From: Bryobacterales bacterium
GTDB lineage: Bacteria > Acidobacteriota > Terriglobia > Bryobacterales > UBA6623
Length of the DNA: 64,000 bases
Reading direction: 5' to 3'
Assembly: GCA_028819255.1 (NCBI GenBank)
Contig: JAPPMB010000064.1
Coordinates: 1-64,000 of the forward strand
In this document: positions 49,433-61,325 of the stretch, one piece after another
How the letters are laid out: each line of letters starts with the position of its first letter
Numbering within the stretch: the stretch's first letter is position 1
The notes under the pieces: model-generated
Database searches by the model: none
The model's input: the letters and a program-made list of their open reading frames with translations, nothing else
Told to the model about the DNA's origin: nothing
Translations under genes and position numbers: made by a program

Positions 49433-49981
49433 GTGGCCTACATCGAAACCATCGCCCCTGACAGGGCCCGCGGAGCCTTGCTTGTTCAGTACGAAATGGC
49501 GGAGCTCCGAGCGGGAAAGGTCTGGAACATCCTGCGGATCATGAGTCCTAATCCGGGGGTGCTGAGCGCCTCGATGGCCCTTTACCTGCAGGTGATGCAT
49601 GGACCGTCCCCCCTCACCAGGGGTCAGCGCGAAATGCTGGCCGTGACGGTCTCCAAGGCAAACGCCTGCCACTATTGAGTGGATGCGCACTGGCACGACC
49701 TCCGGGCTGAGGTCGATCGCGGACTTGCCGACAGGGTGCGGGAGGACTGGCGCAGCGCCGGCCTGGACCGTGCTACGGTGGCCCTCCTGGCGTACGCGGA
49801 AAAGCTCACGCTTTCCCCAGCTTCGTCGACTGCCGGCGACGTCGACAGGCTGCGCGATGCGGGCTGGGATGACCGTGCCATCCACGACGCCGCCCAGGTC
49901 GTCGCCTACTTCAACTACATCAATCGAGTCGCCGACGGCCTCGGGGTTGATCCCGAGCCCGATTCCGGAACCAAAGCGTGA
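49433..49981 (+). CDS. AhpD-like/carboxymuconolactone-decarboxylase-family selenoprotein (CxxU)
   Basis: A 182-aa peroxidase-related AhpD-fold protein whose reading frame contains a single TGA (49676-49678). Before it: RARGALLVQYEMAELRAGKV and SPLTRGQREMLAVTVSKANA; after it: VDAHWHDLRAEV, LLAYAEKLTLSP and VVAYFNYINRVADGLGVDPE. In this family the join is C-x-x-C-x-x-(A/H)-H; here it is A-C79-H-Y-U82-V-D-A-H86, so the TGA replaces the catalytic cysteine exactly. Both halves are in one frame and together give the normal family length. A hairpin 18 bases after the TGA fits a bacterial SECIS, and tRNA-Sec is encoded at 60.9 kb. The likely role is thiol/selenol-dependent peroxide or related reductase, using C79/U82. 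Start GTG 49433 is the most upstream option that keeps the family N-terminus (YIETIAPDRA). Confidence 0.88.
49697..49714 (+). promoter_or_regulatory. candidate bacterial SECIS hairpin
   Basis: Perfect 6-bp stem GACCTC/GAGGTC with loop CGGGCT. The stem begins 18 bases after the in-frame TGA and the loop guanines lie 26-28 bases from it, inside the window reported for SelB-bound bacterial SECIS elements (an apical-loop G about 16-37 bases downstream of UGA). It lies within coding sequence, as is normal in bacteria. Confidence 0.65.
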
Positions 49982-60838: not shown

Positions 60839-60903
60839 GGCGGTGTGTCGCGGCGCGGCTCGGGGCGCGCGGTTCCGCCCGCATCTGCCCGCCAAGCGAT
60901 TGC

Positions 60904-60998
60904 TGGCGGAAGCTAGTGGGAGTCGAACCCACCCTTGACGCGGAGCGCCAAACAGCGGTTTTGAAGACCGGGCCCGACACCGGCCGGGATTAGCTTCC
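60904..60998 (-). tRNA. selC: tRNA-Sec (anticodon TCA), CCA encoded
   Basis: Selenocysteine tRNA, about 95 bases including encoded CCA. The 8-bp acceptor stem GGAAGCTA/TAGCTTCC (60998-60991 and 60915-60908) is followed by discriminator G and CCA. The anticodon loop CTTCAAA carries TCA (60964-60962), reading UGA. A long variable arm can form a 7-bp stem (TTGGCGC with GCGTCAA, one G-U) and the T arm is GTGGG-TTCGACT-CCCAC. The 8-bp acceptor stem, long extra arm and UCA anticodon together identify tRNA-Sec. It implies SelA/SelB/SelD elsewhere in the genome and supports the in-frame TGA of the AhpD-like gene at 49.4 kb. Confidence 0.96.
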
Positions 60999-61325
60999 GT
61001 GGCTCGATTCTAGCAATCGCCCGGTCCGGTCATGTGATGGGTCTGGTGCCTCGACGCGCTGGACGCCGGAGTCAGGTGTCGCGACGGCCCACGGAATGGG
61101 GGCACGGAGGCTGCCGGCGGATCGAAGGGCCGCGAACGGCAGGCGATTCCTCCGGATTGCCGGAAAGGCGTTGAGCCCCAAGCGAGAGGTTCGGACGGGC
61201 CCACGCGCCTGGTTCCCGGAGCGACGACAACCTTCAGGCACGCAGGCCCACCCGGTACCGGTCGGGAACGAGCAGTCATGTGCGAGCGCCGGTTTTGTAA
61301 CAGCGCGAGTCTCGGCTGGTGTGGC
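60999..61325. other. intergenic, upstream of selC
   Basis: About 330 bases between tRNA-Sec and the VapC stop, both on the minus strand. Open frames here are GC-driven and have no recognisable domain. It presumably contains the selC promoter. Confidence 0.45.

What the first reader, a model, noticed from the sequence alone, without database searches (positions are those of the whole stretch)
60904..60998. selC (tRNA-Sec) lies in the same window as a selenoprotein gene
The sequence forms an 8-bp acceptor stem, long variable arm and TCA anticodon with encoded CCA. This independently supports Sec decoding in this organism. Selenoprotein use is patchy in Acidobacteriota, and tRNA-Sec is 11 kb from its likely customer.
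Basis: partly seen in the sequence, partly recalled or inferred. Interest (0 to 1): 0.72.

Follow-up and report, generated by a model that had tools for sequence, protein, structure and literature searches.

The report
Ordinary selenocysteine tRNA and its enzyme
A soil-type Acidobacteriota genome carries a genuine selenocysteine tRNA gene lying 11 kb from a genuine selenium-containing peroxidase-like enzyme gene; the neighbourhood looks accidental, but the tRNA's promoter seems placed unusually close to the tRNA, so that it may be made almost without a leader.

Summary
Window 60904-60998, minus strand, is a tRNA-Sec gene: ARAGORN finds it, Rfam RF01852 scores 71.2 bits against a cut-off of 47, and the runner-up in the genome scores 46.7. 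It has an 8/5 acceptor/T arm, a 6-bp D stem with a 4-nt loop, anticodon TCA, G73 and encoded CCA. The genome has selA, selB and an Ndh-SelD fusion, none of them in the window.
The customer is real: an AhpD-like CxxU protein (49433-49981, TGA at 49676). 41 of 48 relatives covering the site have TGA, 7 have Cys, and a hairpin under strong synonymous constraint follows.
The proximity is incidental. In the genus, tRNA-Sec occurs in 11 of 11 genomes and the Sec gene in 9 of 11. They share a contig in 2 of 9; in one genome they are at least 118 kb apart. Three other candidate Sec genes lie elsewhere. All this is known biology.
One unforeseen lead: a -10-like hexamer sits 6-9 nt before the mature tRNA-Sec in 30 of 38 Bryobacterales genes, against 3 of 34 other tRNAs of this genome. 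This suggests near-leaderless transcription, untested.

The parts
60904..60998 (-). selC, tRNA-Sec (anticodon TCA), CCA encoded
   Evidence: ARAGORN; RF01852 71.2 bits; pairing; 11 of 11 genomes of the genus
61007..61012 (-). -10-like hexamer TAGAAT, preceded by TGC (extended -10), 8 nt before G1 of the tRNA; predicted promoter of selC
   Evidence: inference, no transcript data
49433..49981 (+). AhpD-like (peroxidase-related, CMD fold) selenoprotein gene, GTG start, motif CHYU (CxxU)
   Evidence: Pfam CMD 38.9 bits; TIGR01926 132.5 bits, cut-off 81.8; 41 of 48 relatives have TGA at the site
49676..49678 (+). in-frame TGA read as selenocysteine
49697..49714 (+). predicted bacterial SECIS hairpin, GACCUC-CGGGCU-GAGGUC
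   Evidence: 97.2% of cells paired, 3 cells changed on both sides, slid versions 23-53%; Leu codon CTC 47 of 47, Arg codon CGG/CGT 46 of 46; a single-sequence fold is not better than shuffles

Best explanation
60904-60998(-) is the single tRNA-Sec gene (selC) of an Acidobacteriota genome of the order Bryobacterales that decodes UGA as selenocysteine by the ordinary bacterial route. Inferred from the families involved: SerRS charges the tRNA with serine, SelA converts it using selenophosphate made by an Ndh-SelD fusion protein, and SelB carries Sec-tRNA to UGA codons followed by a SECIS hairpin. One such codon is in the AhpD-like CxxU gene 11 kb away, whose hairpin starts 18 nt after the UGA. 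The tRNA serves several Sec genes across the genome, and its closeness to this one is an accident of local gene order. Shown: the tRNA, the machinery genes, the conserved UGA and the constrained hairpin. Inferred: that the UGA is actually read as Sec, and the enzyme's redox function.
For: tRNA. Machinery: selB C77 358.5 bits (cut-off 242.25), selA C96 528.4 (267.9), selD C30 279.9 (125) as a 754-aa protein with N-terminal TIGR03169 and a CRGC motif. Sec gene: 49 loci found, 48 cover the site, 41 TGA and 7 Cys, the Cys ones at most 43% identical; all 8 genus relatives that have the gene also have TGA. SECIS. Other Sec genes: peroxiredoxin FTGGU (L148), peroxiredoxin-like UPFC (L154), formate dehydrogenase SCNRTUH (L158). 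Independence of position: of the 9 genus genomes with both genes, 2 have them on one contig (11 kb here, 19 kb in G008); G009 at least 118 kb, G010 at least 70 kb, G007 at least 29 kb, G003 at least 20 kb, G005 at least 13 kb; G001 and G006 unresolved (at least 4 and 5 kb); 2 genomes keep tRNA-Sec without the Sec gene (minimum distances worked out by hand). era stands beside the AhpD-like gene in 3 of 9, whereas a sulfatase gene and a homologue of the 62290 ORF flank tRNA-Sec in 11 of 11 (with the window itself).
Against: No expression, selenium-labelling or mass-spectrometry data exist here. The hairpin does not stand out in a single-sequence fold (z -0.25, -1.02 and -0.11 for three lengths), and only 1 of its 6 pairs shows a change on both sides, in 3 cells. 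A second profile, TIGR04369 (SelD-related fusion, 'not SelD'), matches the SelD fusion over nearly its whole length at 494.7 bits, but below its cut-off of 700. Conserved order between the window and G008 leaves open a weak local linkage in part of the genus.
Confidence: 0.95

Rival explanations
1. The proximity is functional: selC and the AhpD-like Sec gene form a conserved selenium locus that is co-inherited or co-regulated.
For: Same order and orientation in the window and in G008 (11 and 19 kb). With four candidate Sec genes in 6.7 Mb, the chance that one lies within 11 kb is about 1% (hand estimate).
Against: Different contigs in 7 of 9 genus genomes, with minimum separations up to 118 kb; housekeeping genes (era, ybeY-like, phoH) and unrelated genes lie between; the genes face each other; 2 of 11 genomes keep tRNA-Sec without the gene; among 49 loci with a homologue, ARAGORN finds a tRNA-Sec within the fetched flank in 1 (L055), though many of those loci are short.
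Confidence: 0.04
2. The gene is an allo-tRNA or another tRNA-Sec look-alike that inserts serine or cysteine.
For: Allo-tRNAs are reported from Acidobacteria (PMC7609411, passages seen).
Against: By those passages allo-tRNAs have a 12-bp acceptor domain in 8/4 or 9/3 form; here it is 13 bp, 8/5. selA, selB and selD are present, and conserved UGA codons with constrained hairpins exist.
Confidence: 0.02
3. The tRNA is a decayed or contaminant copy.
For: The two basal anticodon-stem pairs are mismatched. G006 carries a second tRNA-Sec on a 6.1-kb contig that looks foreign, so such contamination exists in this group.
Against: Here it sits deep in a long contig (C59, at least 153 kb by the match coordinates) with flanks shared by all 11 genus genomes; all other pairs are intact; G000 is 98.16% complete with 0.75% contamination.
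Confidence: 0.01

Closest known systems
Bacterial tRNA-Sec (selC), 8/5 type; Rfam RF01852
   Same: 8-bp acceptor, 5-bp T stem, 6-bp D stem with 4-nt loop, long variable arm, UCA anticodon, G73, CCA (defining features from passages of PMC7609411)
   Different: Only 4 of 6 anticodon-stem pairs of the Rfam model form; the -10-like element lies 8 nt from the mature 5' end
AhpD-like selenoprotein, CxxU (TIGR01926; COG2128/PF02627 forms)
   Same: CxxU motif, CMD/AhpD core, TIGR01926 over its cut-off. PMC13188914 lists 'AhpD-like protein TIGR01926 CxxU', and PMC2398784 lists AhpD-like 1 and 2, both CxxU (passages)
   Different: Nothing of substance; it is a new sequence
Ndh-SelD fusion selenophosphate synthetase
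   Same: N-terminal pyridine-nucleotide oxidoreductase fused to SelD with a CxxC (CRGC) motif, as described in PMC2398784 (passages)
   Different: Nothing noted
Leaderless tRNAs of Nanoarchaeum equitans
   Same: Promoter placed so that transcription would begin at or near nucleotide 1
   Different: There leaderless tRNAs make up for the lack of RNase P in an archaeon (PMC10941002, passage); here only tRNA-Sec, in a bacterium whose RNase P RNA is present (283.8 bits), and only predicted

Membership tests
Bacterial tRNA-Sec | covariance-model score over the gathering cut-off | tested here: met
   71.2 against 47 bits
Bacterial tRNA-Sec | 13-bp acceptor domain in 8/5 form | tested here: met
   8 of 8 and 5 of 5 pairs
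Bacterial tRNA-Sec | 6-bp D stem with 4-nt loop (SelA recognition) | tested here: met
   CCCGGC-CGGT-GTCGGG
Bacterial tRNA-Sec | UCA anticodon, long variable arm, G73 | tested here: met
Bacterial tRNA-Sec | selA, selB, selD in the same genome | tested here: met
   each over its curated cut-off
Bacterial tRNA-Sec | charged with serine and converted to Sec | not testable with these tools
   needs biochemistry
Allo-tRNA | 12-bp acceptor domain, 8/4 or 9/3 | tested here: not met
   8/5
AhpD-like selenoprotein (CxxU) | family profile over its cut-off | tested here: met
   TIGR01926 132.5 against 81.8 bits; Pfam CMD 38.9 against 23
AhpD-like selenoprotein (CxxU) | in-frame TGA aligned with Cys of homologues, homology on both sides | tested here: met
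   41 TGA and 7 Cys of 48
AhpD-like selenoprotein (CxxU) | bacterial SECIS downstream of the UGA | tested here: met
   single-sequence fold unremarkable
AhpD-like selenoprotein (CxxU) | selenium in the protein | not testable with these tools
   needs 75Se labelling or mass spectrometry
Conserved selC-selenoprotein locus | linkage kept across the genus | tested here: not met
   same contig in 2 of 9; at least 118 kb apart in G009
Leaderless tRNA | promoter -10 about 6 nt before nucleotide 1 | tested here: inconclusive
   hexamer at 6-9 nt in 30 of 38 Bryobacterales genes, 8 nt in the window; no transcript data

The most novel reading that the evidence does not exclude
In Bryobacterales tRNA-Sec, unlike the other tRNAs, is transcribed from a promoter whose -10 element lies 6-9 nt before the mature 5' end, so the transcript starts at or within about three nucleotides of G1. 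The 8-bp acceptor stem would then be set largely by the transcription start, not by RNase P, and the tRNA might keep a 5' triphosphate or need only a trim of 1-3 nt. In E. coli, by contrast, the long stem was put down to abnormal RNase P cleavage (title of Burkard and Soll 1988, seen only as a reference).
Probability: 0.4. Interest if true: 0.45.

Novelty: new member of a known kind. Interest (0 to 1): 0.22.

Why it matters
As found, it is a clean example of bacterial Sec decoding in the Acidobacteriota, and it shows that closeness of selC to a Sec gene should not be read as linkage without a synteny test. If the promoter lead holds, a bacterium would define the unusual 5' end of tRNA-Sec by transcription initiation although it has RNase P. 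That would bear on how the long acceptor stem, the main mark by which SelB tells this tRNA apart (PMC7609411, passages), is produced.

Tried and rejected
Functional linkage of selC with the AhpD-like gene was tested by synteny across the genus and rejected.

A 9-bp inverted repeat flanking the tRNA in the window (about 60896-60904 and 61011-61019) looked like a leader-trailer stem of the precursor. It is absent from the flanks of the other genus genes printed, so it is taken as private or chance.

Other in-frame TGA candidates in the window: the crude scan listed 8 places; only 49676 was followed to homologues across it. The rest look like shadow frames or ordinary stop codons by their surroundings and were not tested one by one.

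A blastn search of the tRNA in E. coli genomes gave no match, so no E. coli selC promoter could be compared. A tRNAscan-SE or Secmarker run was not available; RF01852 and ARAGORN stood in.

Print searches on leaderless tRNA and the selC promoter; only titles, abstracts and the passages were seen. None showed a near-leaderless bacterial tRNA-Sec. Subscription papers are not held, so this does not show that none is in print.

In the promoter test the groups were: 38 Bryobacterales-order tRNA-Sec genes (37 loci besides the window, taken; G006's foreign-looking copy L137 and duplicate loci left out), 34 other tRNA genes of this genome with enough upstream sequence (from the loci; one search listed 43 matches), and 29 of the 30 fetched tRNA-Sec loci from other Acidobacteriota. 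The hexamer weights were my own; one search used plain patterns instead. The 38 are related: 11 are of one genus, and counted by genus it is 13 of 19. The 38 are not all the tRNA-Sec genes found in these relatives: 49 of 61 genomes had one.

Full report
What was claimed.

The tRNA. ARAGORN finds one tRNA in the 64-kb window, tRNA-SeC (tca), at exactly these coordinates on the minus strand. Rfam RF01852 matches end to end with 71.2 bits, cut-off 47. In the whole genome (6.7 Mb, 174 contigs, 98.16% complete) the next match is 46.7 bits, as expected of long-arm tRNAs. The pairing was checked base by base: acceptor 8 of 8, T stem 5 of 5, D stem 6 of 6 with a 4-nt loop, anticodon TCA, G73, CCA encoded; only the two basal pairs of the 6-bp anticodon stem fail.

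The machinery. selB (358.5 bits), selA (528.4) and selD (279.9) are each present over their curated cut-offs, on three other contigs. selD is the C-terminal part of a 754-aa protein with an N-terminal pyridine-nucleotide oxidoreductase (TIGR03169, 482.1 bits, cut-off 310) and a CRGC motif. This is the Ndh-SelD fusion with CxxC described in PMC2398784 (passages). A 'not SelD' fusion profile, TIGR04369, also matches but stays below its cut-off, 494.7 of 700.

The customer. At 49433-49981(+) lies a GTG-started frame with one in-frame TGA (49676) in a CHYU motif. Read through, it matches Pfam CMD (38.9 bits) and TIGR01926 (132.5 bits). A scan of genome contigs gave 49 loci; 48 cover the site, of which 41 have TGA and 7 have a Cys codon. 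The Cys forms are the distant ones, at most 43% identical. After the TGA a hairpin GACCUC-6 nt-GAGGUC is kept: on 49 aligned sequences (47 distinct) 97.2% of cells pair, against 23 to 53% for slid versions, with 3 cells changed on both sides, all in one pair. Thirteen more distant TGA sequences were left out of that alignment; they visibly carry a differently spelled hairpin at a similar place (read by eye). Codon choice is telling: the Leu codon in the stem is CTC in 47 of 47, against 280 of 722 Leu codons elsewhere in the same proteins; the Arg codon at the loop is CGG or CGT in 46 of 46, against 244 of 718 elsewhere. A single-sequence fold by itself does not stand out.

Other customers. In the same genome a peroxiredoxin has TGA in FTGGU, a peroxiredoxin-like protein has UPFC, and a formate dehydrogenase has SCNRTUH. 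So the tRNA has at least four candidate customers, only one of them near. No systematic selenoprotein search of the genome was made; three families were looked at.

Is the closeness meaningful? In the genus, tRNA-Sec is present in 11 of 11 genomes and its neighbours, a sulfatase gene and a homologue of the 62290 ORF, are fixed in all 11. The AhpD-like Sec gene is present in 9 of 11. In 2 of the 9 the two genes share a contig (11 kb here, 19 kb in G008). From contig lengths they are at least 118 kb apart in G009, 70 in G010, 29 in G007, 20 in G003 and 13 in G005; G001 and G006 cannot be resolved. era stands beside the Sec gene in 3 of 9. The closeness is therefore local gene order, not a unit.

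How common is the trait? Among 61 relatives (this genome included), all of the same order, 54 have a match over Rfam's cut-off, but 5 of these reach only about 47-50 bits, as other long-arm tRNAs do; 49 have one of 68 bits or more. In an even sample of 247 Acidobacteriota genomes, 143 have tRNA-Sec at E <= 1e-11. 'Patchy' is right, but the trait is not rare.

A lead outside the finding. On the minus strand the tRNA is preceded by TGCTAGAAT, an extended -10 element, with 8 nt between the hexamer and G1 (61007-61012). A TANNNT hexamer lies 6-9 nt before the mature 5' end in 30 of 38 tRNA-Sec genes of the order (13 of 19 genera by majority), in 3 of 34 other tRNAs of this genome, and in 8 of 29 tRNA-Sec genes of other Acidobacteriota. 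A weighted score gave 30 of 39 against a shuffled mean of 3.2 and maximum of 8 (there one foreign-looking gene was still included). With the usual spacing of about 6 nt (recalled), transcription would start at G1 or up to 3 nt before it. RNase P RNA is present (283.8 bits), so its loss is not the reason. This is a prediction from sequence alone. Relatedness within the genus inflates the count, 6 of 19 genera do not show it, and the other-tRNA control comes from one genome only.

Verdict. Novelty is low: a new member of known kinds. The promoter placement is the only part I would follow.

Noticed in passing
window 61007-61012 (-), upstream of tRNA-Sec: Extended -10-like element only 8 nt before the mature tRNA; the 6-9 nt placement is shared by 30 of 38 Bryobacterales tRNA-Sec genes but only 3 of 34 other tRNAs of this genome.
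   Followed up: partly
window about 60896-60904 and 61011-61019: 9-bp inverted repeat (GCGATTGCT / AGCAATCGC) flanking the tRNA gene, not seen in the other genus genomes.
   Followed up: yes
L137 1321-1419 (G006:C189): A second, quite different tRNA-Sec on a 6.1-kb contig of G006 (7% contamination), closer in look to the Planctomycetota gene in L055; probably a contaminant contig.
   Followed up: partly
G053:C100:257-347 and G053:C126:70431-70521: Two high-scoring tRNA-Sec genes (68.9 and 64.6 bits) in one genome of the order.
   Followed up: no
L158 and L161 (G000:C78:60833-65602): The Sec formate dehydrogenase lacks the first 49 profile positions; a match to profile positions 1-48 lies about 3 kb downstream, with a NuoEF-like reading frame near. 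Possibly a split catalytic subunit.
   Followed up: no
L108-L126 (order relatives): A distinct, more distant AhpD-like CxxU group (often NHCPFU motif) with its own hairpin after the TGA, GCCGC-loop-GCGGC, is common in other genera of the order.
   Followed up: no
window 60904-60998: The two basal anticodon-stem pairs of tRNA-Sec are mismatched (C-T, C-C), with the same bases in the other genus genes.
   Followed up: partly
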